Shown piece after piece: positions 13,593 through 63,345 of a stretch of DNA of 64,000 nt. A program made the position numbers and the translations under genes. The DNA comes from a virus, in the IMG/VR virus record IMGVR_UViG_3300025697_000023, positions 1-64,000 of that record; one strand, written 5' to 3'. The notes under the pieces were generated by a model. The model did not search any database, was not told the DNA's origin, and saw only the letters and a program-made list of their open reading frames with translations. Position 1 is the stretch's first letter. The number at the start of each line of letters is the position of its first letter.

Positions 13593-14359
13593 TGATGGAA
13601 CTCGACTCACTAATAGAACTTGCGCCCAGGCTATCGACTCGATTTCTTGAAAAAACCGCAGCCATGATTCCTTATGCCCGAAAGGTTCTTCAAGAACCTG
13701 ATGCGTGTTGTGCGACTGTCCTTTATTTAGCTGTCAGAACTTTGTTTGGCGTTCAGGTTACAGCCTGGGAACCTGAAACTATTTGGTTAACTTTAGAACG
13801 GCAGGAAAATATTGAGTTGGACGAGCTAGCCCGGGACAAGATTCAGGCAGCTATTACGCTAGTTGTTAATCCTTCTTTCTACTGGGATAGCTATGTGTTC
13901 CAGAGGACCGCTCAGGCACTTAACGGGGAACCCTTCGATGCTTACGCGCTGCAAGAAATCCCCCCTCCAGTTCAATGTTGGGCTGTTTACGAAGCCGGTA
14001 TTATCCGGGGGTTAGACCTGGATGTTCCTGTTATCCCTGATTACGACGAAGACGTACAAAGCTATACCGCGGTATGTCTCCATAGAGACGGGATGGTACT
14101 TCCCCCAGATCAGCTCATGTATTCTAGAGCTGCTCTTAAGAACCTCTATCCTAAAAACACGCAAGAGTTTGCAGCCACTGTTATGAAGTCCTGGTCACAA
14201 GTAAAAAAAGAGGACCTCCAGAAACGTAAGTTTCCGGAAGATCCTCTGGGGGTCCAACTTTCATATTTGGCGGGCTGCAAACTCTACGTAGATGAGCGGG
14301 CAGAAGCACTAGCTAAGGACATTACCTTGGTTTCGGTACGGTCTTCCAGTCCTGCATAA
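13592..14359 (+). CDS. Unknown protein, translationally coupled to the preceding virion-type gene
   Basis: 255 residues starting at the ATG that overlaps the TGA of the gene before (a second ATG follows directly). It includes FLEKTAAMIPYARKV near residue 20 and FQRTAQALNG, the recurring motif of this phage's virion block. The middle is rich in aromatic and acidic residues. Its last 38 bases overlap the end of the leftward MoxR-like gene. No function can be assigned. Confidence 0.65.
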   Translation: MMELDSLIELAPRLSTRFLEKTAAMIPYARKVLQEPDACCATVLYLAVRTLFGVQVTAWEPETIWLTLERQENIELDELARDKIQAAITLVVNPSFYWDSYVFQRTAQALNGEPFDAYALQEIPPPVQCWAVYEAGIIRGLDLDVPVIPDYDEDVQSYTAVCLHRDGMVLPPDQLMYSRAALKNLYPKNTQEFAATVMKSWSQVKKEDLQKRKFPEDPLGVQLSYLAGCKLYVDERAEALAKDITLVSVRSSSPA

Positions 14360-15578
14360 GATCATTGTCGACATTCCGGGTATTTTTATCCAACTGTTTA
14401 TGTATTTCTCGCCAACCAGGAAAGTCGGCCATTTCATACATCAGTTCAGTCAGGTAGTCTCCCGCGTTATTGTCTTCGGCCATCTGGTTAAGACCCGTAT
14501 GGATCTGCATAAGAACTTCTGCAGGAAGGTCTCCCAGGAAGGTAACGAAGTTTTTGGCTACCTTGTCAACACTGGTTTTCTTCGCAAATAGAATTGTAAG
14601 AACACCTTGACCAAGGTCCAGTAATTTGGTGCGGTCTTTCTTGATCAGTTTTTTCACTGCAGTTCGTGTCTTCCCCTTATATGCCCGTAATACTTCTTCC
14701 GGCTTTACTGTCAAAGTAGAGTCCGTGAGAAAATCTATAAGTTGTTTTGTTACAGTCATACCTACGGAAGCTGCGTAACGTGTTTCTGCGAAAGGACCAA
14801 TGATACTTACATTATTCTTTTCCATTAAGTAAGTATCGAGAGAGATAGTCTGTATTGTTGCGGGACACATATACTGCTTGTTCACACGTTGTGCTGCCAT
14901 GTCATAGATGAGTTTGGGGAACGTTTCTATGAACGACAGGATACTCGGGTGGCAGGGCAGCGACTTACCTAGAGCATCCCTATCACTGAAGTGGAAGATA
15001 TCGGATTTGGCGTGAGGGTACCAGGATTGGAAAGACGGGATACAGTACAACCACTTGAGTCTACGGCGAAGTGCCGCGTTCGTTTCGATCTGTGTAACAC
15101 TGTATTTGTCCGTGGCGGGATTCATCATACCCACGACCATACAATCTTTCGGTAGTAGATAGTCGAACATTCTCCGGTCTTCGATCAGCGAAAAGAACAT
15201 CGAGATTGCGTGGGGTAGTCCCTGGTTTAGTTCGTCAAAAACCACCATGGCTTTTTCTCCGCCTTCGGGAAAGTTCTCTGGTAGCAGCGTTTTGAAAAAT
15301 CCGATTTTTGCTTCTTTTGTAGAAGGGATCCCCGCCCCCATCAACCCGTAGTGGGCCGTACGGATGTCACATACCCTGGCGCCCACCTCGTGCGCTACCT
15401 GATGAACTACTTGGCTCTTGCCCATTCCGGCTTCTCCGACAAGCATGAAAGCCCCCCGCCACTGCTTAGCATTCCAAGAAAGTAAGATCTGTTCTTTTGC
15501 GCCTGCCATAGTTACCTGCGGGATGTCATGTAGCTGAGCATACTTGAGTTCTTCTTCGTTCTTTTTTCCTTTTGTCAT
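14322..15578 (-). CDS. MoxR-like AAA+ ATPase
   Basis: 418 residues. Walker A is GEAGMGKS near residue 48, Walker B VVFDELNQ near 112, and a sensor-like MMNPATDKYS near 150, with an Arg-rich ALRRRLKW soon after, in the order seen in MoxR/RavA ATPases. The C-terminal half is helical. These ATPases act with VWA-domain partners to assemble, activate or unfold protein targets, and a metallopeptidase-VWA gene starts 1.8 kb downstream. GAGGAG precedes the ATG at 15578. It is divergent from the terminase gene 29 bases away. Confidence 0.85.
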   Translation of the reverse strand: MTKGKKNEEELKYAQLHDIPQVTMAGAKEQILLSWNAKQWRGAFMLVGEAGMGKSQVVHQVAHEVGARVCDIRTAHYGLMGAGIPSTKEAKIGFFKTLLPENFPEGGEKAMVVFDELNQGLPHAISMFFSLIEDRRMFDYLLPKDCMVVGMMNPATDKYSVTQIETNAALRRRLKWLYCIPSFQSWYPHAKSDIFHFSDRDALGKSLPCHPSILSFIETFPKLIYDMAAQRVNKQYMCPATIQTISLDTYLMEKNNVSIIGPFAETRYAASVGMTVTKQLIDFLTDSTLTVKPEEVLRAYKGKTRTAVKKLIKKDRTKLLDLGQGVLTILFAKKTSVDKVAKNFVTFLGDLPAEVLMQIHTGLNQMAEDNNAGDYLTELMYEMADFPGWREIHKQLDKNTRNVDNDLMQDWKTVPKPR

Positions 15579-17227: not shown

Positions 17228-17520
17228 TATACCGCTTAGCGTATAGGACAAGAACCTCGCGGGACTGATGCACCCCAAGCGCTGTCAGCGCAGGGGATCA
17301 TCAGATTTCGGAGGGCTATGGCGCCCGGAGAAATTCTTGACCGGTAGCTGTATGCATAGTTAAGAGCATAAATCAGGATGTAACATCCTATTGCTTCTAG
17401 GGACTAGAAACATTCCGGTATGTACCGCTATGTGTCGGTTTCTAAGAATGACATCTTAGAAACCAAACTACCGTGCTGTGTTGTAGACTTATACCGCTAA
17501 CTAGCGGCTATTTCTTTTTC
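17228..17520 (+). ncRNA. Highly structured non-coding region, candidate novel structured RNA
   Basis: There is no credible ORF here, yet the region is full of hairpins. Examples: 265-304 relative to 17000 (CTGATG/CATCAG, CCCC/GGGG, GCGCT/AGCGC stacked); 17305-17334 (ATTTC/GAAAT then GGA/GGA internal loop then GGGC/GCCC); both enclosed by CAAGA 17249-17253 with TCTTG 17335-17339, giving a three-way junction. Then ACCGG 17340-17344 with CCGGT 17415-17419 encloses three more hairpins (17351-17370, 17375-17389, 17395-17409). An 11-bp hairpin lies at 17437-17464. The ends can also pair (17232-17241 with 17495-17507). Strand is uncertain; a T-rich tract after the last hairpin favours the plus strand. 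A DNA-level role (packaging or replication site) remains possible. Confidence 0.6.
17494..17519 (+). terminator. Candidate intrinsic terminator after the structured region
   Basis: CCGCTA-AC-TAGCGG forms a tight GC-rich hairpin followed by CTATTTCTTTTT. It would end rightward transcription from the terminase gene and structured region. It overlaps the last codons of the leftward polymerase gene. Read leftward, no T-run follows the hairpin. Confidence 0.5.
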
Positions 17521-20500
17521 AAAATCGGCGCGTATAGCCTGTTCAAGGTACGCATCAGGATCTAATTTTTCAATGTTATTTTTGTTCATGTAGTCGTAGA
17601 TATCAATTACTTCTCCGTAAGAGGGTCCTACTTCTACATCCCATTGAAACGGAACAGGTAGCCAGGGGTGGCGAGTTGCAACTCTAGTTTGTCCGTATTC
17701 CTTTACGAAGTCCGGAATTTGAGAGACATACTTTTTAGGTATCTCAGCTACTATCGAATCATGTACCGTAATGAGCAGATGTCCTCCGAAGTCATGTCGG
17801 ATAGGTTCAGCCATTTCACACAGTACCTCGAGTACTAGATCTGAGGATGTACTTTGAATCTTAAAGTTAATTGCCTGCCGGTTTGCTTTGCTGCGCCCAT
17901 AGGGGGTTAATCCTAGCATTTCAAACCTACGACGACGTCCCAAGAAGGTCTCTACTACACCAATATTTCGTACCTGATCTTTTGTGATACGCACATACTC
18001 AGGTATTGATGGAAACATTTTCTCGAGTGCATCAATAATCGTTTGTGCCTGTTCCAACGAGATCCCTACAATTTGCGCAATTTTGTATTTACTGGCGCCG
18101 TATAAAATTCCGAAGACCACGCGCTTAATTGTTTTCCGAAGTTTTTCTAACTGTCTCGCATACCAGGGATCCGTATCCTTGAAATTATTTCGGTTATTAA
18201 AGTCGTCGTAACTCCAACCGTGGTCTTCATCGATACCTATGAGGTTCATCACAGCTTTTCGTGATGCGTATTGTACCTCTGCCAGGATGGTCTCAGGTTT
18301 AAAGATCATGCCCGCGAAGAATGAGTGGGGATCCATACCGTCATTCAGGGCTTTAATTAAGTTCTTATCCTTACTATAGGCCGCGTAGATTCTAACCTCT
18401 GCTGCCTTAGCGTCTGCGTTACAGATCACCTGACTCTCGGGGTCAGTAGGAATAAAACTCTTTTTGATGTTATGTTGCCCGATTTGATAGGGGACATTTT
18501 GCATGTTTTCGTCTGATGATGAATTGTGGTTTACAAAACCTTGCGCAACGAAAGAATGATCATAAGCTACTTCGATATCCCAAACGCCTTTTATTCCGAT
18601 ACTTCGGATAGACTTGATTCGGCTAGTACCAAATTTATTTGAACGGTATTTATCGCGTATACGGCGCTGACGATTACAGGTAGTAACTTCAGAACCAATA
18701 TCTAATTCTTTAAGGCGGTGGATTACTAAAGGACCGTAAATTGATCCAGGTTCTGAAGGAGTGTAAAAACCATGGTTTTTTGTAACTTCAATTGAGGATC
18801 CGTTCTCAAGTGTAACACAATACATTTCTTCATCACCCTTGCAGAACAACTTAACGATATTACGTAATCTATTTTTGTGAGTCCTAATAGATACCGAAGG
18901 TATTAGATCCAAGGGTAGTTTTGAAATTACAAAAGATCCCTTGTCTGTGTCAAGAATAGTATTCTCGGAAACACAAAGACGAAAAGTAGCAGTGCCGTGT
19001 TGGTGGAAGTTCGTATGCATACGTCCGTCTTCTTCACTCAGGGCTTTGATATTGGCCACGAAGGTTGTCAGAGCCTTGTGTGTTGCTCGGTACCGCAGGA
19101 TAGCACGGGATAGGGGACAGTCATGCTGTGTAGCGAGTGAGCGTAAGAACTGAGCGTTAGTAGATGCTAAGCCTGTCTCCGTTCGAGGCGGTTCTATAAC
19201 GCCGCTGTAGCATACTATTTTACCTGTTTCAGGATGTTTGAAACCTGTGCCATATAGGAGTTTACGTACGTCAGCAGCACTAGAAGGATTGAATTTAATG
19301 TTCTCTGGAACCATTGGCAGCATCTCAGCACGAGATTGCACGATAGATAGTTCCATCTTAACGGCTAATTCGTCTACGTAATCCCGGTCAACCTTTACAC
19401 CGTAAAGCTCCATTTCCGCCAAGACACGAGTCGTAGGGATTACTCGTCCAAACATATTAGCTGAAGTAGGGTCTCGCATAGAACAGCCAGGCTGTGCTAG
19501 GTGCTTAAAGTAGGCGTTATGCGCCCACTGGCCTCTACGCTTTGCCAGCGCAGTGTTCTCTTGCTCAGCTCTTTCCCGCTGTAGACCTACTATCTGCCTT
19601 GTAACATCGCCATCGATAGCTCCATACAGGTTAAGGTCGTCCAACGGTATTTTCAAAAAGCCCTCGGTAGCAGCATCTTTGGCTAACTTTTTGGCGGCTC
19701 CTTTAAGCTTTTTCTTTTTCTCGGCCGTTTGTTTTGCATCCGCGATCTGTGAATCGCCTTCGGTGGCTGTAAGAATAGCTTGGAGGGTATCTTCATACCC
19801 GGAGTAAGCCGGGAGCATAATATTTGTAAGATCTTTTAGGCCGTAAAAACCTTTCTTATCTTCAACTAAAAGATGTTCTCCAAGCATGGTATCCCAACCG
19901 ATTCGTCTGATATCCCAACCCTTGCTTTTAAGAACTTTTAAATCAAATTTTGCATTCTGCAAAACCTTAGGCTTTGGACTAGAAAGTATCCGTTGTATCA
20001 GCGGAGCGACTTGTTCAAATGTCCAAGGAGTATCGGGGTGTTCAATTGGTATGGATGTGGAATAGCCTGTAGCCCAAGAAACTATCAGACTCAAGAGTTT
20101 CAAGTTTTTTCTGTGGGGATACTTAGTGTTCGTTTCAGTATCTAGAGAGATTATCCAGTTATCTGGATTCACATCATTTTCGGTATATGCGAGAATATGA
20201 TCGACTAATTTTTCTACCTCTTTAAGAGTCTTGGGAAAAACATAGTTCTTTGCAAGGACGTCAAGGGTAGGCGTCATCTGGATTGCTTTACCTTTGCCTA
20301 CATCTACTACTCCGGAGAGGAACAAATCCATATGATTTTTAAACAAGTCAAAGTAACCTGTTTTGGCTGCAAGTTGTTGCTTTGACATGGACACATAGAT
20401 ATATACTTTACGCCCCTGGAGGGTAGTAGTTACAAAATGTTCTTGTGTTGCCGAGTATTTTCTAAATTTGATACCCAAGGATTTTAGAACACTATCGCCC

Positions 20501-20952
20501 ATTGCAAAGATCATAATAGGACGGTCAGGACGTGAGTATGTTAATAGCTCCTGGTGAAAAAGTGGAGCACAACAATCTATATTATTTTTGAGAGGCTTTT
20601 TGCGCTCACAACGCACCGCATACGTAAACCTTCCTACGAACGGCTTAAACACCGTGTTTATATCTATTGTCCGTAGAAAGGCCGCACGTACTATTTTCTC
20701 AATGTCTTTAGTCCATCCTTGATGGTTAATTAGACTAGCAGACGGTCCCGATAAAAATGGAGAATTAGCTACGCAGAAAAAATCAACTTTATGAGGAGTC
20801 CCTCCTGCGCCGTCAGTATAGTGTGCTTTTTGGGAAAGCTTACAAGTCTTACACTTGGGGCCGCGCCATGCATTTTCACCGCAGAGTTGGCAGAAATCAT
20901 TCGTCGCGGGTCCATCCGTATTCGCTGGCGTCTTTTGGTCGTTGTTTACCAT
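17497..20952 (-). CDS. Family A DNA polymerase with N-terminal UDG-like domain, 3'-5' exonuclease and a mini-intein
   Basis: 1151 residues. The N-terminal ~215 residues have two Cys pairs (CQLC, CKTC), a Ser/Gly/Pro loop (PFLSGPSASL), TYAVRC and FAMGDSVLKSLG, resembling family 4-type uracil-DNA glycosylases. The exonuclease domain shows SLDTET near 269, LQNAKFDLKVL near 331 and YGAIDGDV near 443. The polymerase domain has RLSSSDENMQNVP (split by the intein), motif A NADAKAAEVR, motif B RKTIKRVVFGILYG and motif C TVHDSI, where the usual Glu after His-Asp is Ser. It would be the replicative polymerase. AAAGGA precedes the ATG, which lies inside the end of the primase-helicase gene. Without the intein it is 1000 residues. 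Confidence 0.93.
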   Translation of the reverse strand: MVNNDQKTPANTDGPATNDFCQLCGENAWRGPKCKTCKLSQKAHYTDGAGGTPHKVDFFCVANSPFLSGPSASLINHQGWTKDIEKIVRAAFLRTIDINTVFKPFVGRFTYAVRCERKKPLKNNIDCCAPLFHQELLTYSRPDRPIMIFAMGDSVLKSLGIKFRKYSATQEHFVTTTLQGRKVYIYVSMSKQQLAAKTGYFDLFKNHMDLFLSGVVDVGKGKAIQMTPTLDVLAKNYVFPKTLKEVEKLVDHILAYTENDVNPDNWIISLDTETNTKYPHRKNLKLLSLIVSWATGYSTSIPIEHPDTPWTFEQVAPLIQRILSSPKPKVLQNAKFDLKVLKSKGWDIRRIGWDTMLGEHLLVEDKKGFYGLKDLTNIMLPAYSGYEDTLQAILTATEGDSQIADAKQTAEKKKKLKGAAKKLAKDAATEGFLKIPLDDLNLYGAIDGDVTRQIVGLQRERAEQENTALAKRRGQWAHNAYFKHLAQPGCSMRDPTSANMFGRVIPTTRVLAEMELYGVKVDRDYVDELAVKMELSIVQSRAEMLPMVPENIKFNPSSAADVRKLLYGTGFKHPETGKIVCYSGVIEPPRTETGLASTNAQFLRSLATQHDCPLSRAILRYRATHKALTTFVANIKALSEEDGRMHTNFHQHGTATFRLCVSENTILDTDKGSFVISKLPLDLIPSVSIRTHKNRLRNIVKLFCKGDEEMYCVTLENGSSIEVTKNHGFYTPSEPGSIYGPLVIHRLKELDIGSEVTTCNRQRRIRDKYRSNKFGTSRIKSIRSIGIKGVWDIEVAYDHSFVAQGFVNHNSSSDENMQNVPYQIGQHNIKKSFIPTDPESQVICNADAKAAEVRIYAAYSKDKNLIKALNDGMDPHSFFAGMIFKPETILAEVQYASRKAVMNLIGIDEDHGWSYDDFNNRNNFKDTDPWYARQLEKLRKTIKRVVFGILYGASKYKIAQIVGISLEQAQTIIDALEKMFPSIPEYVRITKDQVRNIGVVETFLGRRRRFEMLGLTPYGRSKANRQAINFKIQSTSSDLVLEVLCEMAEPIRHDFGGHLLITVHDSIVAEIPKKYVSQIPDFVKEYGQTRVATRHPWLPVPFQWDVEVGPSYGEVIDIYDYMNKNNIEKLDPDAYLEQAIRADFEKEIAAS
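18523..18975 (-). other. Mini-intein (151 aa) in the DNA polymerase
   Basis: Residues 660-810 of the polymerase ORF. It begins CVSENTILDTDKG, has a block B-like VTKNHGFYT, and ends VWDIEVAYDHSFVAQ (block F) then GFVNHN before the +1 Ser of SSSDEN. No LAGLIDADG or HNH motif is visible, so it cannot home by itself. The insertion is in the conserved RLSSSDPNLQNIP-type segment of family A polymerases, between Leu and the first Ser. Confidence 0.92.
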
Positions 20953-36161: not shown

Positions 36162-39100
36162 ATGCCAGACTTGACCCCCATTATGATGGACCCGGAACAA
36201 AAACGGGCAGCTATAAAGCAGCGCGTTATGGAAGGACTTCGTGAATCTTTCCCTGTAAAATCGCGCAATAAAACATTAGAAGTCTTGGACCTGAAATTTG
36301 TAGACAAAGATTTTTCTCCGTCAGACCAAAAGGCAGCGCTTCTCCGGGGGGATACCTTGCATGAGGCTGTGAAAGGAACACTCAGACTCAAAGATAAAGA
36401 TGGCAAATTAATTGACGAACTCAAAGATTTTACCATGGCCAGGATTCCTTGGTTTACTCCTCGCCACACATTTATTGTAGGGGGCAACGAGTATTCTGTT
36501 TCTAATATGGTACGGCCCAAGCCGGGAGTCTATGCGCGTAAACGTGCTAATGAAGTTCTCGAAGCTAACTTTAATATCGTTGGAGGCCACAACTTTAATA
36601 TCACTATGGACCCTGAGAAAGGAGAACCGCAACTTGAATACGGTTCTTCAAAAATACCCTTGTATACAATTCTCCGTAAAGCCGGAGTATCTCATGAGCG
36701 TATTGCTAAGATATGGGGTCGAAAACTTGCAGAACAAAATCATAAAAAACTAAGTAAAAATGCTGATAAACATGTAGATAAACTTTACAACAAAATAATC
36801 CCGGAATACCGCCAAAAAGCAGGTGCGGGTACCTCTGATAAAATAGATGAGATTTTTGCGCGTTACGCTGACACCCACATGGACCCGGATGTCAATGAAG
36901 CCACGCTAGGTAAACGCTACTCTGGTGTTTCTCAGGACAGTCTCTTAGATGCTTCAGGTAAAGTACTCCAAATTTTTAAACAAGACGCGGAGGTCGACGA
37001 CCGAGACAACCTGGATTTTAAAACTATTCATGGTGTCGAAGATTTCTTTAAAGAACGTATCAAGCTTGACGCCCGGGACGTGGCACGAAAAACTGCAATC
37101 AAAATGGAAGTTGTACCGGAACTTAAGAAAGCTCTAGCGTCAGGCCCGTTTACTAAGGGGATTCTTAAGTTTATCAATAGCTCTCAGTTAGCATCTGTGC
37201 CTACGCAAACTAATCCTATGGAGTTAATTGATGCTGCCATGCGGGTTACTTCTTTGGGTGAAGGAGGGATCTCGTCAGAGCGTGCTATTCCTATAGAAGC
37301 TCGGTACACACATCCTACTCAGATTGGTGCCCTGGATCCTATACGTACTCCCGAGTCTTTCCGAGCAGGTATAGACGTCCGTGCTGCTATGATGGTTAAG
37401 CGCGATAATAACGGCAATATCTATGTCCCCGTTTACGACGTAAAGAAAAAGAAATCTAAATATATTCGTGCAGGAGAAATCCAGCGAAAGATATTGGCTT
37501 TTCCAGGTCAGAAAATGACAGGTAAAGTAGATGTCTTAGACCGGGGCCGAGTTAGAGTGCTTCCTGCATCTCAGGTAGATTATCAAATCCCACATGTATC
37601 CGCCATGTATAGTCCCACGACTAATCTGGTTCCGTTTATAGAATCATCCCAGGGTAACCGAGCTATTATGGGTTCCAAGATGAGTACTCAAGCGCTTTCG
37701 CTAGTAGATCGCGAAGCTCCCCTGGTACAGGTTAAGTCCCAAACAGGAGACTCCTTCGAAAGTTTGATGGGGAGCATTATTAATCCAACGGCACCAATCA
37801 ATGGAACAGTTACCCGAGTTACTGATGAGTATATCTATATACGTCCTGACGGTGAAAAGGTGGGTGCTGTAGGGGGTAAGACCGTTAAAGTTCCGTATGA
37901 GAAAGATTTTCCTTTAGCATCTAAGACGTACTTAGATCACAAAATATTAGTAAAAAGTGGGGACCGCGTAAAGCGTGGACAAACTTTAGGAGAGTCTAAT
38001 TTTACTCGAGGAGGCAAGCTGGCTTTGGGTAAGAACCTACGGGTAGCTTACATGCCTTACTACGGAGCAAACTCTAATGACGCCGTGGTTGTAAGTGAAG
38101 GTGGCGCCGGAAAACTAACATCAGAACGAATGTATAAGATTGTTGTTACCCGGGATAATGACCTCACGTTTAACCGGGAAAAACATAGAACATATTATGG
38201 ACACGGCTACACGAAAGACCAGTATGGTCCTCTGGACAATGAGGGAGTAGTCAAACCGGGAGCTAAAATTAAGAGTGGGGATCCTGTAATTCTGGGTCTT
38301 CGTAAATCTGAAATGACTGCTGACGACATCATTCTTGGAAAATTGCATAGGTCTCTCGCTCGACCTTACCGGGAGTTTAAGCAGGGGTGGGACCATGACT
38401 ATGAGGGCGAAGTTATCGATGTTGTAAAAACTCCCAAGCGTATTGCGCTCACGATTAAAACTAGAGAAAGAGCCACGGTTGGTGATAAACTCTGTTACAC
38501 AAAAGATACTGATGTACTTACTACCGGCGGGTGGTTGCCTATATCTGAAGTAGATTACAATACCGTACTCTATACGCTCAAACAAAATGGAAATATAGAG
38601 CTTCAGTTGCCTACAGAACTTTATCGGTATAACAGCGCGGACGAACTGTATGAACTAGAATCCCAACAAGTTAACCTGAGGGTCACACCTAATCATAATC
38701 TGTATGTAAAAACTCGGAATGCGCAAGATTATGCACTAATAGAAGCTCAAAAAGTATTGGGTAAACGTGTAAGACATAAGAAAGATGGAATTTGGCAAGC
38801 AGAAACCCCCCGGGCAGTTAGAATACCCACAGTTATACGAAAAACGGTAGGACGAAAATCTAAAAAATTACCTGAGATTGATACGCTAGCATGGTGTAGA
38901 TTTTTGGGCGCGTATTTAGCGAACGGAAGTTTTTTAGTTCATATGCGGAAAGACCGTAAAGGAAGTATCGAATACAGGACTGCTATACACACCGTGGAAG
39001 GGCAAACACACAGTGTATCGGGAGACCAGCATACTTGGATCCAAAATATTATTAATGCTTGTGGGTTTGTAGGACAACAACGGAAAGATCGATATAACAT

Positions 39101-41579
39101 TTCTTCTCGGCAGCTTACGGAATATGTATCTCAATTTGGTCATGCTCAAGATAAACATATTCCTCCTGAGGTTTTCACGTGGGGAATTGACGCTGCACAG
39201 GCTATGTTGGAAGGATTAATGGGCTGTGACGGAAATGCTTCTCAGAGCGGTAGTTGGTCATATTCTACTGTTTCAAAACAACTAGCGGATGATGTTCAAC
39301 GTCTTGTGCTCCACGCAGGATGGGCGGCGAATATAAAAGAAAAGATGCCAGATAATCCTAACTGGAGTTTATGTTATAGTGTTCGGATTGTTAAATCTAA
39401 GTTAGCACCCCAAATAAATCATGGGCATTCACGAACACAAAATGGTCAAGAAGAACGAATAATTAAATCAAAAGAACCGGTATGGGGGGTTACAGTTCCC
39501 AATCATGTTCTTTATGTCCGCGTTAAAGGAACTACTGTCTGGTCAGGGAATTCAGGACGTTTCGGCAATAAAGGAGTTATCTCCCAAATTATTCCTGACG
39601 ACCAAATGATTGCGGATGAAGCTGGAAAACCTATTGATCTCATCATGACTTCTGCCGGAGTAGTTTCTAGAGTAAACCCCAGTCAGATTATTGAATCTGC
39701 GGTAGGAAAAGTTGCGGAGAAGAGAGGTAAACCCCTGCTTGTTGAAAACTTTTCAGGCCAAGATAATGTTAAGTGGGCAAAAGAGTTACTCAAAAAACAC
39801 GGGATCAAAGATAAAGAAACTGTGTATGACCCCCGAACGGGCAAGAAGATTCCGGGAGTATTTGTAGGTCGTCAATTTATAATGAAATTGTTTAAGTCCA
39901 CAGATACTAACTACGGAGCCCGCGGTCTAGGAAGTTACGACGTAAACCTTCAACCCACCAAGGGCGGTGCCTTGAGCGCCAAGACTCTGGGGCGAATGGA
40001 GTTTGATGCACTGATAGGACACAATGCTAGAAACATGCTTCGTGAAGCCACCGCAATTAAAAGTCAAAAAAACGATGAATACTGGCGAGCACTGCAGCTA
40101 GGGTATCCAACTCCACAACCAAAAACCACCTTTGCAGCTGATAAGTTTTTGAACATGCTTACTGGAGCTGGCATCAAGGTTAACCGCCATAAAAATATAA
40201 TGTCTCTTGCACCTTTGACTGACGCTGATGTTACAAAATTATCTGCGGGGGAAATCAAAGATGCAAAATTAGTTAGAGCCCGGGACCTTCGACCGGAAGT
40301 AGGCGGACTCTTTGATCCAGCTATAACAGGAGGTTTGCAAGGGACTAAGTTCAGCCATGTGTCTTTGGCTGAGCCTGTTATTAGTCCCGTATTCCGTGAC
40401 CCTGTTCGTAGGCTTTTAGGCATGACAGTAAGTCAACTCAATACTGCAGTTAATGAAAAGGGTGCTAAGCATATCCAAAAAGAATTAGCTAAAATTAATA
40501 TAGATCAGCGTCTTCGTGACTTGTATAAATCGATGAAAAAGAAATCAGGGACGCAACTTGATAATGATTTGAAACAGACTAAGTATCTACGGTCGTTGAA
40601 AAAACTAGACCTTACTCCTGACAAAGCCTATATCGTTTCAAAGATACCCGTAGTGCCTCCAGTAGTGCGCCCCATCATCCCTGGTAAGGGTGGTCAGGAG
40701 ATCATGTACGGGGATATTAATCCACTCTACCGAGATCTTATCTACATTAATAATCAGTTCAAGGATGTTAAGAAAAACAAAGTTTTGCTGGATGAAGATA
40801 AAAACTTACGGCCAGCCCTCCAAGAAGCTGTGGGAGCTATCTACGGAACCAATGACCCTGTTACTCAAAAATCTAGAGCACGAGGTCACAAAGGATTCCT
40901 GACTGCCATTGCGGGAACCACTCCTAAGCTTGGGTATTTTCAATCCAAGTTGATTTCAAAAACACAGGATGTTTCTGGCCGCGGAACTATTGTACCTGAC
41001 GTTACCCTGGGGATTGATGAAGTAGGAATTCCTGAAGATATGCTCTGGACAATGTATGAAAAATTCTTGGTTAAGCGGTTGGTACAGAATGGTTACAAGG
41101 CTCTTCAGGCACGCGAGATGGTTGAGGAGCGGCATCCTGGAGCACGCGACATGCTTATGCGAGAAATACAGGAGAGGCCTGTAGTAGTTAACCGGGCGCC
41201 TACGCTGCATCGATACAACATGCTTGGTGCCTTCCCCAAAGCTGTTCCCGGTAAAACGATTAGAATTAATCCCTTTATGGAACCGAGCTTGAATGCAGAT
41301 TATGATGGTGACAGCATGAATATCCATGTCCCCGTCAGTCCGGAAGCAGTTAATGATGCCAAGGATATCACATTATCTCACATGCTCTTCAGTGACAAAG
41401 CCCGGGACAGTCTCCTAGTCTTCCCTGAAATGGAGGCCATCATGGGTCTCGCTCATGCTACTGAAGTAGATGATAAAAATACCACTACAAAAGATTTTAA
41501 AAACAAGGGAGATGCCCTGAAGGCATATTATGCGGGTAAGATTGGATTAGGAACTCGAGTGAAGGTAGGTAAAAAGTAA
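36162..41579 (+). CDS. RNA polymerase beta subunit fused to the N-terminal part of beta-prime, intein-containing
   Basis: 1805 residues including a 353-residue intein. The beta part includes GALDPIRTPESFRAGID near 389, MPYYGANSNDAVVVSE near 631, GDKL/SGRFGNKGVIS at the intein junction (the beta GDKMAGRHGNKG segment) and GGALSAKTLGRMEFDAL. The beta-prime part follows in the same frame: VVPPVVRPI, DVSGRGTIVPDV, RPVVVNRAPTLHRYN and the catalytic NADYDGDSMN (Asp1713, 1715, 1717). The beta-prime N-terminal zinc ribbon seems absent. The rest of beta-prime is encoded at 43340. Fusion of beta and beta-prime is rare and known in a few bacteria. Phage multisubunit enzymes lack alpha, and none is seen. 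Location in the virion block makes a packaged enzyme possible. Confidence 0.95.
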   Translation: MPDLTPIMMDPEQKRAAIKQRVMEGLRESFPVKSRNKTLEVLDLKFVDKDFSPSDQKAALLRGDTLHEAVKGTLRLKDKDGKLIDELKDFTMARIPWFTPRHTFIVGGNEYSVSNMVRPKPGVYARKRANEVLEANFNIVGGHNFNITMDPEKGEPQLEYGSSKIPLYTILRKAGVSHERIAKIWGRKLAEQNHKKLSKNADKHVDKLYNKIIPEYRQKAGAGTSDKIDEIFARYADTHMDPDVNEATLGKRYSGVSQDSLLDASGKVLQIFKQDAEVDDRDNLDFKTIHGVEDFFKERIKLDARDVARKTAIKMEVVPELKKALASGPFTKGILKFINSSQLASVPTQTNPMELIDAAMRVTSLGEGGISSERAIPIEARYTHPTQIGALDPIRTPESFRAGIDVRAAMMVKRDNNGNIYVPVYDVKKKKSKYIRAGEIQRKILAFPGQKMTGKVDVLDRGRVRVLPASQVDYQIPHVSAMYSPTTNLVPFIESSQGNRAIMGSKMSTQALSLVDREAPLVQVKSQTGDSFESLMGSIINPTAPINGTVTRVTDEYIYIRPDGEKVGAVGGKTVKVPYEKDFPLASKTYLDHKILVKSGDRVKRGQTLGESNFTRGGKLALGKNLRVAYMPYYGANSNDAVVVSEGGAGKLTSERMYKIVVTRDNDLTFNREKHRTYYGHGYTKDQYGPLDNEGVVKPGAKIKSGDPVILGLRKSEMTADDIILGKLHRSLARPYREFKQGWDHDYEGEVIDVVKTPKRIALTIKTRERATVGDKLCYTKDTDVLTTGGWLPISEVDYNTVLYTLKQNGNIELQLPTELYRYNSADELYELESQQVNLRVTPNHNLYVKTRNAQDYALIEAQKVLGKRVRHKKDGIWQAETPRAVRIPTVIRKTVGRKSKKLPEIDTLAWCRFLGAYLANGSFLVHMRKDRKGSIEYRTAIHTVEGQTHSVSGDQHTWIQNIINACGFVGQQRKDRYNISSRQLTEYVSQFGHAQDKHIPPEVFTWGIDAAQAMLEGLMGCDGNASQSGSWSYSTVSKQLADDVQRLVLHAGWAANIKEKMPDNPNWSLCYSVRIVKSKLAPQINHGHSRTQNGQEERIIKSKEPVWGVTVPNHVLYVRVKGTTVWSGNSGRFGNKGVISQIIPDDQMIADEAGKPIDLIMTSAGVVSRVNPSQIIESAVGKVAEKRGKPLLVENFSGQDNVKWAKELLKKHGIKDKETVYDPRTGKKIPGVFVGRQFIMKLFKSTDTNYGARGLGSYDVNLQPTKGGALSAKTLGRMEFDALIGHNARNMLREATAIKSQKNDEYWRALQLGYPTPQPKTTFAADKFLNMLTGAGIKVNRHKNIMSLAPLTDADVTKLSAGEIKDAKLVRARDLRPEVGGLFDPAITGGLQGTKFSHVSLAEPVISPVFRDPVRRLLGMTVSQLNTAVNEKGAKHIQKELAKINIDQRLRDLYKSMKKKSGTQLDNDLKQTKYLRSLKKLDLTPDKAYIVSKIPVVPPVVRPIIPGKGGQEIMYGDINPLYRDLIYINNQFKDVKKNKVLLDEDKNLRPALQEAVGAIYGTNDPVTQKSRARGHKGFLTAIAGTTPKLGYFQSKLISKTQDVSGRGTIVPDVTLGIDEVGIPEDMLWTMYEKFLVKRLVQNGYKALQAREMVEERHPGARDMLMREIQERPVVVNRAPTLHRYNMLGAFPKAVPGKTIRINPFMEPSLNADYDGDSMNIHVPVSPEAVNDAKDITLSHMLFSDKARDSLLVFPEMEAIMGLAHATEVDDKNTTTKDFKNKGDALKAYYAGKIGLGTRVKVGKK
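38493..39551 (+). other. Intein (353 aa) with LAGLIDADG-type endonuclease in the beta part of RNA polymerase
   Basis: Residues 778-1130. It begins CYTKDTDVLTTGGWLPI (block A), has VTPNHNLYVK (block B, 841-850) and ends VWGVTVPNHVLYVRV...TVWSGN before the +1 Ser of SGRFGNK. The residue before the final Asn is Gly rather than the common His. Two endonuclease motifs are visible: FLGAYLANG (914-922), with Asn in place of the catalytic Asp, and MLEGLMGCDG (1015-1024), which is intact. The insertion site is a conserved active-site segment of beta. Confidence 0.92.
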
Positions 41580-43070
41580 GTGGCTACTTCCCCCAATTCC
41601 TGGAGCGCCCGCTTAACTGGCGGAAATCCTCTTACTAAGCAGGATGTCCACGACTACTATACTGACCCTGTCATCCAGCAACGTATGTTAGCAGCTCTGG
41701 CTGGACGTAACTTACTCGCAGTTATGTCTAGGTCTCCAACACAGCAGATATTTAAACGCTATCTTGGGAAGAACAAACCCATCCGGATTGACTCGAAAGA
41801 TGATCTCGATTATTATACATCCCGTCGTTACACTGAGTTTCATCCTACCGTAGGAGACCAAACACAGGAGGTATGGGTTGATATCGATCCCGGTAAAGGC
41901 GTTTCTACCGCACAACTCAAACCAGCTGTCAGGGATGTTGCAAAAACTGTACGTTCCGTACCCAACGTCCGTGATGTCGCCATCTCTTTCTCCGGAGGGC
42001 GTGGCTTCCACGTTCGTGGCTTTTTGGATAAGCCCCGTAATACCGATAGAATGCGCAAACAGCTCGAGTCTGAACTGGGCGGAATTCTCAAAACTACCCC
42101 AGCATATACTCTGACGCCCCCGGGTAAGGGTGAAATTCGCCTGGATGTGTCTACCCTGCATAACAAGGGATCCCTTCGGGCCCCGTACTCACTCCACAGC
42201 GAGACCGGGCTCGTAGCTCTACCTCTAAAAAATAATGAACTAGATAAATTCGATCCTAAGAAAGATGCTACTCCTGAGGAAGTTCTTAAGCGTAAAGAAT
42301 TTGCGCCCGGAATTTCTATGGAGCGAACTATTCAACCAATTCCTGAAGAGAGCGGGAAACATTGGACCCTTGCAGTTCAGGAACATAACGCAAAAAAAGC
42401 AGGTAAACATTTTGATCTTCGTCTGGTAGATCCTAGTACAGGCTTTGCGCATTCTTGGGCAATTCCTAAGACCAAGTTTCCGGCACAAAAGGATCGTCCT
42501 ATTCTGGCTATCCAAACTCCTACACATACTGCTGAGTATGCTCTCCAGTTTGGTGCAGACAAGACACGTACAATCGGTAAAGGGTATGGTGCTGGAACCG
42601 TTCGTATTGTTGAAAAGAATCCTGTAAAAATTATTACGGCTAAACCAAACTCAATAAAGTTTGAAAAGGACACAGGGGAGACCTATCATTTGTTTAGGAC
42701 AAAGGATACAACCTGGCTTTTGAGAAATATAACAAGTACAAAAGAGGGAGCCGATATGTCTGAGGCGTTTAATACGGGGTATAGGCTGACAATGGAAAAA
42801 ATAGCAGCCCGTCGAACCATGGGTATGGAGGGCTCTCCACCTGTAAGTGAAACGAACCAGCCCCTGGAGAACGCTGATCAGGGGGGTGCAGCAGACTCCT
42901 TAGCAAAAATGCTCCAAGAAATTCCCGAACTACAGTCTAAAAACCAGAGTAAGAGTACTAACTTGGGAATACAGCAGAGACTCAACAGACGCACAGGATG
43001 GTCAGGTCCTCATAGTATGCAGGGAGAACGAATCGAGGGAGCTTCACCTATTATGGTGGGAAGGTGGTAA
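41580..43070 (+). CDS. Archaeo-eukaryotic-type primase fused to a LigD-type 3'-phosphoesterase domain
   Basis: 496 residues; GTG start directly after the RNA polymerase stop, with GGTAGG upstream. The first ~215 residues fit the AEP/LigD polymerase fold: VWVDIDPGKG (Asp101, Asp103), SFSGGRGFHV (His144), RLDVSTL and KGSLRAPYSLHSETGL. Residues ~261-385 fit the phosphoesterase domain of bacterial ligase D: LAVQEHNAKKAGKHFDLRL, HSWAIPK and GKGYGAGTVRIVE. No ligase domain is present. The C-terminal tail has MEKIAARRTMGMEG, the motif common in this virion block. It might make or polish 3' ends of primers. The gene stands between the two RNA polymerase genes, an unusual place for a primase. Confidence 0.85.
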   Translation: MATSPNSWSARLTGGNPLTKQDVHDYYTDPVIQQRMLAALAGRNLLAVMSRSPTQQIFKRYLGKNKPIRIDSKDDLDYYTSRRYTEFHPTVGDQTQEVWVDIDPGKGVSTAQLKPAVRDVAKTVRSVPNVRDVAISFSGGRGFHVRGFLDKPRNTDRMRKQLESELGGILKTTPAYTLTPPGKGEIRLDVSTLHNKGSLRAPYSLHSETGLVALPLKNNELDKFDPKKDATPEEVLKRKEFAPGISMERTIQPIPEESGKHWTLAVQEHNAKKAGKHFDLRLVDPSTGFAHSWAIPKTKFPAQKDRPILAIQTPTHTAEYALQFGADKTRTIGKGYGAGTVRIVEKNPVKIITAKPNSIKFEKDTGETYHLFRTKDTTWLLRNITSTKEGADMSEAFNTGYRLTMEKIAARRTMGMEGSPPVSETNQPLENADQGGAADSLAKMLQEIPELQSKNQSKSTNLGIQQRLNRRTGWSGPHSMQGERIEGASPIMVGRW

Positions 43071-43072
43071 AG

Positions 43073-43339
43073 ATGAAGAAGACAGCAAACCAAATCGCAG
43101 ACGAAGTTATTGAGAAAGTGGCAATGCCTTACAAAGGAATGATAAAGTCCACTAAACAGATGATTAAAACCTTGACAGGATTTAATGATGCTGCAAGCCG
43201 TAAAGCACTCAAAGAAAGTCAAAAATTCTTAAAAGAAATGGAAGCAGCACAGTCCACAGCAGCCCATGACTTGGGGAGCGTTGACATAGATAAAGGACTT
43301 AAATCCGTAGGTATGAAACCGTTAAACTTAGGTAAATAA
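43073..43339 (+). CDS. Small protein with MKKTANQIAD N-terminus (88 aa)
   Basis: The ATG at 43073 follows GGAAGGTGG. The first ~18 residues, MKKTANQIADEVIEKVA, are nearly the same as those of the 69-residue protein at 61721 (MKKTANQIADYVLQKVA); the rest differs. That pattern suggests a shared N-terminal address or processing signal joined to different bodies. The remainder is Lys-rich and helical. It ends where the beta-prime C-terminal gene begins. Confidence 0.7.
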   Translation: MKKTANQIADEVIEKVAMPYKGMIKSTKQMIKTLTGFNDAASRKALKESQKFLKEMEAAQSTAAHDLGSVDIDKGLKSVGMKPLNLGK

Positions 43340-45133
43340 ATGACTGAAACCTTCGGAAAATATCTAATTAACGATACCCTTCCACACGAACATCGTGTCA
43401 CTGGGGCAGTGACTAAAAAAGATTTCTCTAAGCGTATGGTGATCTTGGCTAAGGAAGATCCTACTAAATACGCAAAACTCGTAACGCGGCTCAAAAAACT
43501 AGGAGATGAATTAGCAACACAAGCAGGACTTTCTGTAGGTCTTGACGATATTACTCCGGAGTATTCTATTCGTAATCAAACCTTGGCTCCGTATTTGAAA
43601 AGATTTAGGGAAACTAAGTTAGCAGATAAACACCGGGCTATTGCTGAGGCCGCGCAGGAAAAAATGCAAAAAATGGTCATGCGCCATCCCGGGTCACTTA
43701 CTCAGCAGGTTCGTTCTGGAGCCCGAGGAAAATCGTTTCAGCTCATGGGTATTGTCGCAGGCCCTGTTGCCTCCAATGAACCTACAGGACAAACAGCTCC
43801 CTGGATCATTCAGAAATCCTACAGTGAAGGTCTATCTCCCGCGGACTATTGGGTGGCAGGTAACGAAGCAATCCTGAATACTATCAAATCAAGTACCTCT
43901 GTCTCCGAGCCTGGAGAATTGTCTAAAGTTCTAATTAACAATATGAATGATCTCATAATTACGGAAGATGACTGTGGAACCACTAATGGAATTCTCCTGA
44001 AAACCACAAATCCTGATGTTATCGATAGATACTTAGCTCGAGATACCGGGCCTTTCCGACGTAACATGCTTATCACTTCGCTACTACAGCCTAAGCTGGC
44101 ACGCACAAGTACTAAGGTATTGGTACGTTCTCCTATGACTTGTGAAGCGGGAGACGGAGTTTGCCAGAAGTGCCAAGGCCTCGACGAAAAAGGGAATATT
44201 CAGGAGATGGGAACCAATGTAGGCGTCCGTGCTGCTCAGGCTATGGCCGAACCCCTAACACAATTTGCACTGGATGCTAAGCACGGTACGCGTACCGCGA
44301 AGGGTGAGCGTAAAAAAGTAGGAGGCATCGTAGGCTTCCGACAAATTATTGAGTCACCTAAAACGTTTATTAATAAAGCAACTCTGGCATCAATATCTGG
44401 AAAAATTAAGAATATCGAGACTGCCCCCCAGGGAGGACATTTTGTTTTTGTTGATAACGAAAAACATTACGTCAGTCCTAATCTTGGTGTGATTGTTCAA
44501 AAAGGAGATGTCCTGGAGGCGGGGGATGTATTAAGTGAGGGTATTCCAAAACCTGATGAGGTGGTTAAATACAAAGGCCTCGGGGCGGGGCGTCTTTACA
44601 TGGTGAATACCCTAAAAGATCTATACCGTAATCAAGGTCGTGATCTTGACCAGCGTCATTTTGAACTCTTGGCCCGAGGTGAACTAGACTTTGCGAGGAT
44701 TGTAGATGATCCTGGAAATACATTTTTAAAGGGTGACATAGTAAGTTATAACCAAATTCAATCTACACTAGGGCGTGACACGCAGGAAGTACCAGTTAAG
44801 GATGCAATTGGACAAACACTCGGAAAAGATTATTTCCAATATTCTACAGGTCTTAGGGTTACTCCATCTGTTGCAAGATTTTTACAAAAAGAAAACGTAA
44901 AAAGTGTTCAGATTGCTCCGAGGGCTCCAGAGATAGAGTTTGTAATGAAACCTGCAACCCGTGCGCCCCTGCTTAATCCCGATTGGATGGCTCGACTATC
45001 CCACCGTAATTTGAAAGTTACTCTTCAGCAAGCAGCTCACTTTGGAGAAAAGTCAGATCTCCACGGAGTTCACCCTGTTCCGGCGTATATTATGGGAGTG
45101 GACTTTGGTAAAGGAGAACAGGGACGTTATTAA
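43340..45133 (+). CDS. RNA polymerase beta-prime subunit, C-terminal part
   Basis: 597 residues. RSGARGKSFQLMGIVAG (near 126), SYSEGLSPADYWVAGNEA (trigger loop/bridge region equivalent), IITEDDCGT, VRSPMTCEAGDGVCQKCQGLD (second beta-prime zinc site), and VGVRAAQAMAEPLTQFALD correspond to the downstream half of bacterial beta-prime. Together with the fused protein at 36162 it completes the enzyme. The break between the two parts falls after the catalytic Asp loop and before the trigger loop, similar to the split seen in phiKZ-type phages. It starts right after the small gene at 43073 and overlaps the next start by one base. Confidence 0.95.
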   Translation: MTETFGKYLINDTLPHEHRVTGAVTKKDFSKRMVILAKEDPTKYAKLVTRLKKLGDELATQAGLSVGLDDITPEYSIRNQTLAPYLKRFRETKLADKHRAIAEAAQEKMQKMVMRHPGSLTQQVRSGARGKSFQLMGIVAGPVASNEPTGQTAPWIIQKSYSEGLSPADYWVAGNEAILNTIKSSTSVSEPGELSKVLINNMNDLIITEDDCGTTNGILLKTTNPDVIDRYLARDTGPFRRNMLITSLLQPKLARTSTKVLVRSPMTCEAGDGVCQKCQGLDEKGNIQEMGTNVGVRAAQAMAEPLTQFALDAKHGTRTAKGERKKVGGIVGFRQIIESPKTFINKATLASISGKIKNIETAPQGGHFVFVDNEKHYVSPNLGVIVQKGDVLEAGDVLSEGIPKPDEVVKYKGLGAGRLYMVNTLKDLYRNQGRDLDQRHFELLARGELDFARIVDDPGNTFLKGDIVSYNQIQSTLGRDTQEVPVKDAIGQTLGKDYFQYSTGLRVTPSVARFLQKENVKSVQIAPRAPEIEFVMKPATRAPLLNPDWMARLSHRNLKVTLQQAAHFGEKSDLHGVHPVPAYIMGVDFGKGEQGRY

Positions 45134-45771: not shown

Positions 45772-46146
45772 ATGCACGAACTTTTAAAAGCAGCCTATGC
45801 TGAAGGGGCTAAAACTGCACTCATGGACGTAGGATATTCTCAAGATGATGCTTACCAAATGAGCGAGAAAGTTGCACAAGAACCTCGAGGCACTCTAGAG
45901 CGTGTAATGACTGGGGCCCCGGTAGGAGCATCCTTGGGAGTATTGGCAGGAGGCGCCCTAGGGTTAGGCCGTACTCCTATCATGCGTCGAGAATTAATGC
46001 GTCTCTTAAAACAAAAAGAAAGTGGGGGTCTTTGGAAGGCACTAACAGAAGTGGCTTCAAACCCTGCTAATAAAGATCAGATACGTAATTTGGCAATTCC
46101 CGGAGCCGTTGGTGGCGGAGCCATTGGCGCAATCAGCGGAACGTAA
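45772..46146 (+). CDS. Small protein with the LLKAAYAEG N-terminal module (124 aa)
   Basis: I start at the ATG at 45772 because the resulting N-terminus MHELLKAAYAEGAKTALMDVGY aligns with MENEILKVAYAEGCRLALLDAGY of the protein at 63001. The module is about 35 residues and helical. A Gly-rich hydrophobic stretch (GAPVGASLGVLAGGALGLG) follows, then a basic part and a Gly-rich end. A virion or membrane-entry role is possible. Function unknown. Confidence 0.65.
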   Translation: MHELLKAAYAEGAKTALMDVGYSQDDAYQMSEKVAQEPRGTLERVMTGAPVGASLGVLAGGALGLGRTPIMRRELMRLLKQKESGGLWKALTEVASNPANKDQIRNLAIPGAVGGGAIGAISGT

Positions 46147-62846: not shown

Positions 62847-63011
62847 ATGAAGAAAATAGTAGAGCAAGATCGGGAATTAAAAGCCCTGGATGTCTTTGAG
62901 TCTAAAGACTGTGAGACTAAAAAAGTAGCTTATAATATCTTTGAACTCTACCGACCTATGGTCAACGGAGACGTTATCAGAATAAGAAGTGCGGTAACTC
63001 ATGGAAAATGA
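62847..63011 (+). CDS. 54-aa protein homologous to the Walker B region of the phage helicase, catalytic Glu replaced
   Basis: AGGAGGATAAT precedes the ATG. Residues ~12-53 align with residues 784-826 of the primase-helicase at 20897: LKALDVFESKD versus LMALDEFESAD, and NIFELYRPMVNGDVIR versus NIFELYRPMINGEVVR. The Walker B Glu (ALDEFE) is Val here. The DNA differs mainly at third codon positions, so the peptide has been kept while the DNA diverged. It has no Walker A, so it cannot be an ATPase. Its end overlaps the next start by eleven bases. It may bind a helicase partner or act as a decoy, or be a relic; only the similarity is certain. Confidence 0.75.
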   Translation: MKKIVEQDRELKALDVFESKDCETKKVAYNIFELYRPMVNGDVIRIRSAVTHGK

Positions 63012-63345
63012 AATTCTAAAAGTAGCGTATGCTGAGGGCTGCCGTCTTGCACTTTTGGATGCAGGTTACGACGTAAAGACAGCCGAGAACATGAGCGAGG
63101 ACATCACTGAAAAGATGACTCCTACAGTGCCCAACCAATTTAATCCCGTGATTGGCTTGGGGAAGAAGCCAACGAAGAAGTTGGAGAAAAAAGCAAAGGC
63201 CGAGCAGGCGCTTCTCAAGAAGTGGCTTGCGAGTATTGCCAAGAAGGGTGGTCCTAGTGCTGCCAAGGATTCCAAGATAGTGAAGGATATGCTAGCCATG
63301 GAAAAAGATGTTGCTTCCAAGATTCCTAAGATACCCAAGAAATAA
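63001..63345 (+). CDS. Small protein with the ILKVAYAEG N-terminal module (114 aa)
   Basis: It begins MENEILKVAYAEGCRLALLDAGY, the paralogue of the module in the protein at 45772. The rest is Lys-rich and helical (KPTKKLEKKAKAEQALLKKW). The start lies inside the previous small gene. Its stop is followed at once by the next ATG. Probably packaged or structural; function unknown. Confidence 0.65.
   Translation: MENEILKVAYAEGCRLALLDAGYDVKTAENMSEDITEKMTPTVPNQFNPVIGLGKKPTKKLEKKAKAEQALLKKWLASIAKKGGPSAAKDSKIVKDMLAMEKDVASKIPKIPKK

What the first reader, a model, noticed from the sequence alone, without database searches (positions are those of the whole stretch)
41580..43070. AEP primase fused to a LigD-type phosphoesterase domain, inside the RNA polymerase operon
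Seen: both domains with their key residues (DIDPG, SGGRGFH; QEHNAKKAGKHFDLRL, SWAIPK). Known: in bacterial LigD these domains occur with a ligase for end joining; here the ligase is absent. The phage already has a DnaG-type primase. A primer-making or end-repair protein encoded between two RNA polymerase genes, and ending with the block's K-x-A motif, may be injected with the DNA to repair or circularise ends at entry.
Basis: partly seen in the sequence, partly recalled or inferred. Interest (0 to 1): 0.72.

Follow-up and report, generated by a model that had tools for sequence, protein, structure and literature searches.

The report
Phage LigD-like polymerase-phosphoesterase beside RNA polymerase
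A group of large, mostly uncultured phages carries, inside its own RNA polymerase gene block, a two-part DNA-repair enzyme built like two thirds of the bacterial end-joining protein LigD, fused to a short address-like tag that unrelated neighbouring proteins also bear.

Summary
ORF 41580-43070 (+, 496 aa) joins a LigD-type primase-polymerase (Pol; PF21686, E 1e-13) to a LigD 3'-phosphoesterase (PE; PF13298, E 6e-8), with no ligase. It is not a one-off. It occurs in 25 further viral contigs at the same place, between the two halves of a split RNA polymerase beta' gene, forms one clade and is under strong purifying selection. All metal-binding and phosphate-binding residues of both active sites are invariant in 19 orthologs. 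The histidine that makes LigD Pol prefer ribonucleotides is invariant too. The loop-1 hairpin and most of the 5'-phosphate pocket that NHEJ polymerases use to hold two ends together are missing, and no Ku or ligase was found in three 170-179 kb relatives. So gap filling and 3'-end cleaning fits better than end joining or circularisation. In sister phages the same slot holds PE-ligase fusions. The C-terminal tail is a separate ~100-aa gene in sister phages. It carries a short helical tag ('aY..GY..aL.KLG'), found on several unrelated proteins of this block (31 hits, 1 in reversed controls) and swapped in one ortholog for a second tag. I read the tag as a virion-packaging or RNAP-docking label; this is inferred, not shown.

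The parts
41580..43070 (+). AEP-PE-tail protein, 496 aa (LigD-type primase-polymerase + LigD-type 3'-phosphoesterase + tag-bearing tail)
   Evidence: 25 further contigs
41631..42317 (+). AEP domain (residues ~18-246); metal aspartates D101, D103, D189; ribonucleotide-selector H88; 5'-phosphate lysine K20; no loop-1 hairpin
   Evidence: residue roles from PMC8656161, PMC6362072, PMC7072297, PMC3898472
42345..42737 (+). Phosphoesterase domain (residues ~256-386); Q267, H269, H277, D279, R281, S292, H316, Y320 correspond to LigD PE Q40, H42, H48, D50, R52, S61, H84, Y88
   Evidence: PMC8656161
42756..43067 (+). C-terminal tail module (residues 393-496); a free-standing ~100-aa ORF directly upstream of beta'C in sister phages; possible internal ATG start at 42756 preceded by GAGGGAG
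42765..42806 (+). Tag B helix 'AFNTGYRLTMEKIA'
   Evidence: (helix 394-413)
43073..43339 (+). Small ORF (88 aa from ATG 43073) beginning with tag A 'MKKTANQIADEVIEKVA'
36162..41579 (+). RNA polymerase beta fused to the N-terminal part of beta', with a LAGLIDADG intein that L002 lacks
43340..45133 (+). C-terminal part of RNA polymerase beta'
45772..46146 (+). Small glycine-zipper protein just downstream of beta'C with N-terminal tag B 'MHELLKAAYAEGAKTALMDVG'

Best explanation
The gene makes a two-activity enzyme that prepares damaged or gapped phage DNA for sealing. The Pol domain extends a 3' end across short gaps, preferring ribonucleotides. The PE domain trims 3' phosphates and surplus 3' ribonucleotides, leaving an end that a ligase, probably the host's, can seal. 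Unlike LigD it carries no ligase and lacks the parts with which LigD Pol holds two separate ends together, so it should act on gaps and nicks rather than join broken ends. The fused tail with its short helical tag is an address label shared with unrelated neighbouring proteins. It most likely loads the enzyme into the virion, together with the RNA polymerase, so that it acts on the genome at or soon after entry. Shown: domain identity, conserved active sites, missing loop 1, conserved position, purifying selection, tail as an independent module, recurrence and exchange of tags. Inferred: both activities, the substrate, the use of host ligase, and virion packaging.
For: Both domains pass Pfam cut-offs and match LigD Pol and PE structures. 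D101, D103, D189, H88 and all eight PE active-site residues are invariant in 19 full-length orthologs. dN/dS is 0.03-0.08 where dS could be measured. The gene lies immediately upstream of beta'C in 24 contigs besides the window and maps to one clade of the beta'C tree (100/100) with a single loss, L019. The same slot in the sister clade holds PE-ligase (L028, L048, L039), and PE is fused to an SNF2 helicase in distant L044, so the PE module is repeatedly paired with DNA-processing domains. Loop 1 is absent: 25-34 residues between landmarks against 44 in a cellular LigD Pol. There is no Ku and no ATP or NAD ligase in the AEP-PE records searched. The tail is a free ORF in five sister phages and survives in L019 although the enzyme is gone. 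Tag B: 31 hits against 1 in reversed sequences, all on the coding strand, 30 of them in or just downstream of the slot. Tag A: 9 hits against 0 reversed. L016 carries tag A where its orthologs carry tag B.
Against: No virion proteomics or biochemistry exists. The motif-B histidine (H144), described as invariant in this superfamily, is Tyr in 10 of 19 orthologs, so catalysis may be unusual. The records are metagenomic contigs of unknown completeness, so a ligase could lie in missing DNA or be too divergent. The tag patterns were derived from these same loci, so the reversed control shows they are non-random but not what they do. No tag was found in the isolate relatives Arash and D181.
Confidence: 0.5

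Rival explanations
1. End joining and genome circularisation at entry: the protein bridges and fills the two phage DNA ends as LigD does, and host ligase (with or without host Ku) seals them, comparable to the Ku-encoding mycobacteriophages.
For: Pol and PE domains both come from the LigD toolkit; K20 of the 5'-phosphate pocket is kept in 18 of 19 orthologs; sister phages keep PE-ligase in the same slot; phage-assisted NHEJ circularisation is proposed for Corndog, aided by a phage-encoded Ku (PMC4351075).
Against: Loop 1, specific to NHEJ polymerases and needed for synapsis (PMC3898472), is missing in all 19 orthologs; by my reading of the alignment the loop-2 lysine and arginine and the N13/K16 equivalents are also not conserved; no Ku or ligase in the records searched.
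Confidence: 0.2
2. RNA-polymerase-coupled repair: the tag docks the enzyme on the phage RNA polymerase, which brings it to gaps or breaks met during transcription; packaging in the virion is secondary or absent.
For: Encoded between the beta' halves in every member where both flanks are seen; the free tail ORF always sits directly upstream of beta'C.
Against: Tagged genes also occur downstream of beta'C and about 18 kb away (63001-63345), and tag A-like starts occur at the far end of G003; the RNAP halves carry no clear tag partner.
Confidence: 0.2
3. A dedicated primase: the AEP domain makes primers for phage replication or restart, and the PE domain trims them.
For: AEP fold; a 'R-A-P-Y-S-L-H' motif resembling PriS; weak matches to PriS profiles.
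Against: Best structural and profile matches are LigD Pol, not PriS; the phage already encodes a protein with a DnaG-type zinc ribbon; the gene sits in the RNAP block near portal and putative head genes, not in the replication block.
Confidence: 0.12

Closest known systems
Mycobacterial LigD (Pol-PE-Lig order, NCBIfam PRK09632)
   Same: Order Pol then PE, both folds, catalytic residues, ribonucleotide-selector histidine
   Different: No ligase domain; no loop 1; N13/K16 equivalents missing; motif-B His often Tyr; extra tag-bearing tail; viral; no Ku found
Stand-alone archaeal NHEJ polymerase and phosphoesterase (Methanocella paludicola 5dmu, 5dmp)
   Same: LigD-type Pol and PE that exist without a fused ligase (Z 22.2 and 13.5)
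   Different: Solved there as separate proteins; here fused to each other and to a tail, and encoded in a phage RNAP block
Mycobacterial Prim-PolC (short-gap repair polymerase)
   Same: LigD-Pol-like AEP used for gap filling rather than end joining (Z 20.9)
   Different: Prim-PolC keeps loops 1 and 2 and has a loop 3 (PMC7442782); no fused phosphoesterase is described in the passages read
Mycobacteriophages Corndog and Omega with a phage-encoded Ku
   Same: A phage borrowing the bacterial NHEJ toolkit
   Different: They bring Ku; these phages bring Pol and PE and have no detectable Ku
Polyvalent proteins of phages and plasmids (PMC5512222)
   Same: Multi-domain DNA-processing proteins inferred to be delivered with the DNA
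   Different: LigD and NHEJ are not mentioned in that paper; here small exchangeable tags instead of one giant polypeptide
mReC phages, RNAP-encoding Caudovirales (PMC7481178)
   Same: Multi-subunit RNAP of a distinct Caudovirales lineage, probably this one (not tested by tree)
   Different: That paper's text does not mention primase, ligase, split genes or inteins

Membership tests
LigD polymerase domain (Prim-PolD) | AEP fold matching LigD Pol rather than other AEPs | tested here: met
   PF21686 above cut-off; Z 23.9 to 2iry, PriS structures 13-16
LigD polymerase domain (Prim-PolD) | Three metal-binding aspartates and the ribonucleotide-selecting histidine | tested here: met
   D101, D103, D189, H88 invariant in 19 orthologs
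LigD polymerase domain (Prim-PolD) | Motif-B histidine | tested here: inconclusive
   His in the window (H144) but Tyr in 10 of 19 orthologs
LigD polymerase domain (Prim-PolD) | Loop 1 hairpin needed for end synapsis | tested here: not met
   25-34 residues between landmarks versus 44 in a cellular LigD Pol
LigD polymerase domain (Prim-PolD) | 5'-phosphate pocket N13, K16, K26 | tested here: inconclusive
   K26 equivalent K20 kept in 18 of 19 (Arg in L022); N13 and K16 equivalents not conserved by alignment; structure not superposed residue by residue
LigD 3'-phosphoesterase (PF13298) | Metal triad H42/H48/D50 and R52, H84, Y88 | tested here: met
   H269, H277, D279, R281, H316, Y320 invariant; Z 16.1 to 3p43
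Bacterial LigD (complete) | ATP-dependent ligase domain in the same protein | tested here: not met
   No PF01068 match in the protein or in the AEP-PE records
Bacterial NHEJ system | Ku protein encoded alongside | tested here: not met
   No PF02735 in 34 records; several records may be incomplete and host Ku was not tested
Virion-packaged (ejected) protein | Present in purified virions | not testable with these tools
   Only indirect: place near portal and putative head genes, shared tags, and two genes in the corresponding slot of phage Arash annotated 'structural protein' (basis of that annotation not stated)

The most novel reading that the evidence does not exclude
These phages use a modular address-label system. 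Short exchangeable N-terminal or fused helices (tags A and B) load unrelated enzymes (LigD-type Pol-PE, SNF2 helicase, metalloprotease-like and glycine-zipper proteins) into the virion with the phage RNA polymerase, so that a repair kit enters with the genome and patches it before transcription. The slot between the split beta' genes is the exchangeable cargo site.
Probability: 0.35. Interest if true: 0.82.

Novelty: new variant of a known kind. Interest (0 to 1): 0.62.

Why it matters
No match to this protein was found in 50,697 phage records, and in the listed matches to a sister PE-ligase only its ligase part was covered. A conserved, selected Pol-PE enzyme without ligase or Ku would be a new use of the end-joining toolkit and suggests that phages repair their own DNA very early in infection. 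The shared tags give a concrete, testable handle on how phages that carry multi-subunit RNA polymerases choose what to package, which is poorly known.

Tried and rejected
1) Deeper sequence searches with the protein itself found few relatives. The real family appeared only by scanning with beta'C and then searching the loci. 2) The genome-contig scan gave only a cellular LigD Pol (L073), used as a yardstick. 3) I first took the motif-B histidine (H144) as the ribonucleotide selector. The papers show it is the histidine upstream of motif A (H88 here), so I dropped the idea that the H/Y variation changes sugar choice. 4) A functional internal start for the tail: an ATG at the fusion point occurs in most orthologs, but a Shine-Dalgarno-like stretch is not consistent, so I list it only as possible. 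5) A hidden AEP domain in the N-termini of L048 and L034: no Pfam match. 6) L031 looked like PE fused to an ADP-ribosyltransferase by eye; Pfam gave nothing, so it is not claimed. 7) Weak Csm6/HEPN matches of the 91-aa ORF are weak (Pfam match below cut-off) and taken as chance. 8) Exact tag A DNA in all viral contigs found only the L019 contig plus two apparently unrelated hits, so tag A is not a widespread sequence. 9) The viral structure library gave only weak generic AEP matches.

Full report
WHAT IS THERE. The window is a 64.8-kb viral contig. ORF 41580-43070 encodes 496 residues and starts with GTG directly after the stop of the upstream gene. Pfam places LigD_Prim-Pol at residues 65-238 (1e-13) and LigD_N, the 3'-phosphoesterase, at 267-346 (6e-8), both above the curated cut-offs. 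NCBIfam's best model is PRK09632, a 781-position ATP-dependent DNA ligase model, matched in two stretches up to position ~460. From general knowledge that is the mycobacterial LigD with order Pol-PE-Lig, so the phage protein corresponds to its first two thirds. The AlphaFold model has pLDDT around 90 in both domains and is disordered after residue 386 apart from a few helices. It superposes on M. tuberculosis LigD Pol (Z 23.9, 230 residues, 2.4 A) and archaeal LigD PE (Z 16.1, 116 residues, 1.7 A).

NEIGHBOURHOOD. Upstream is an RNA polymerase beta subunit fused to the N-terminal part of beta', with an intein. Downstream, after a small ORF, is the C-terminal part of beta'. So the gene sits inside a split beta' gene. 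The block follows a portal-like gene and is followed by a gene with a head-maturation-protease match and one with a weak major-head-protein match.

IT IS A CONSERVED GENE. Scanning with the beta'C protein gave 67 loci. The AEP-PE gene is present in 25 contigs besides the window, in 24 of them immediately upstream of beta'C; the 25th, L003, is cut within the gene. On a beta'C tree it marks one clade (22 rows, 100/100) with one loss. dN/dS is 0.03-0.08 in the pairs where dS could be measured. In 19 full-length orthologs the metal aspartates D101, D103 and D189, histidine H88, and the PE residues Q267, H269, H277, D279, R281, S292, H316 and Y320 are invariant. These PE residues correspond to P. 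aeruginosa LigD Q40, H42, H48, D50, R52, S61, H84 and Y88 (PMC8656161). H88 corresponds to the LigD Pol histidine that favours ribonucleotides (Mt His111, PMC6362072; Pa His651, PMC7072297).

WHAT IT LACKS. In LigD Pol a 5'-phosphate pocket (N13, K16, K26), loop 1 and loop 2 hold two ends together; loop 1 is described as specific to NHEJ polymerases (PMC3898472). The phage proteins keep K26 (K20 here; Arg in L022) but have 25-34 residues where a cellular LigD Pol has 44, so loop 1 is missing. By alignment the loop-2 Lys and Arg are replaced by a largely conserved Pro-Pro. The motif-B histidine is Tyr in 10 of 19. No Ku was found in 34 records. No ATP ligase was found in the 13 AEP-PE records, and no NAD ligase in the ten of them searched, including three of 170-179 kb. 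End joining by the classical route is therefore unlikely; gap filling and 3'-end cleaning with host ligase is the simplest reading (inference).

SAME SLOT, OTHER PARTNERS. In the sister clade the slot holds PE fused to an ATP-dependent ligase (L028, L048, L039). More distant phages with an unsplit beta-beta' gene have PE-ligase just downstream of it (L055, L057), and L044 has PE fused to an SNF2 helicase. The PE module is thus the constant part with variable partners.

THE TAIL AND THE TAGS. The C-terminal ~105 residues are a free-standing ORF directly upstream of beta'C in L028, L031, L034, L039 and L048 (profile E 8e-6 to 0.04; alignment). In L019 the enzyme is gone but a PE remnant plus tail remains, and the slot is filled with other genes, among them an SNF2 helicase and a DUF5662 protein. 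The tail begins with a short helix, tag B ('aY..GY..aL.KLG'). A regular expression for it, anchored to a nearby Met, gave 31 hits in 1.1 million residues against 1 in reversed sequences. All are on the coding strand: 17 in the slot, 13 just downstream and 1 inside the polymerase. A second tag, A ('MRKTANQIADEALLKCA'), heads several unrelated slot proteins (9 hits, 0 reversed) and replaces tag B in the AEP-PE of L016. Exchangeable short helices on unrelated proteins look like address labels. Whether the address is the virion or the RNA polymerase is not shown. In phage Arash, an isolate with the same split beta', two genes between the RNAP halves are annotated 'structural protein', which favours the virion only weakly.

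NOVELTY. No match in 50,697 phage records. In 72,556 plasmid records the only match is the PE part of one ligD. The viral structure library holds only weak generic AEP matches. The paper describing RNAP-encoding Caudovirales does not mention primase, ligase or split genes. I rate it a new variant of a known kind; the tag system, if confirmed, would be more.

Noticed in passing
36162-41579, 1019-4654, 17497-20952: Inteins or LAGLIDADG insertions in RNA polymerase beta-beta'N, class II ribonucleotide reductase and family A DNA polymerase; L002 lacks the one in RNA polymerase.
   Followed up: partly
9173-10333 and 5268-6206: Reverse transcriptase gene near a DUF2793 protein, possibly a diversity-generating retroelement; no repeat search was done.
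   Followed up: no
L019 4272-9989: The slot holds at least five ORFs instead of AEP-PE, four bearing tag A, including an SNF2 helicase whose tag is internal and followed by a weak DUF6582-like domain; a truncated PE plus tail is left just upstream of beta'C.
   Followed up: partly
12600-13592: 330-aa protein with seven copies of a [polar]-K-x-A motif, on the + strand between oppositely oriented genes, unlike its neighbours.
   Followed up: no
L054, L055, L057, L060, L062, L065, L067: Related phages with beta and beta' fused in one open frame of about 2000-2570 residues; in the window's lineage beta' is split exactly where cargo genes sit.
   Followed up: partly
L003 7681-8379: Tag A protein with an HELGH metalloprotease-like motif between beta'N and AEP-PE; no Pfam family above cut-off.
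   Followed up: partly
10969-12558 and 14322-15578: MoxR-like AAA ATPase and VWA/metallopeptidase-like (DUF2201) pair.
   Followed up: no
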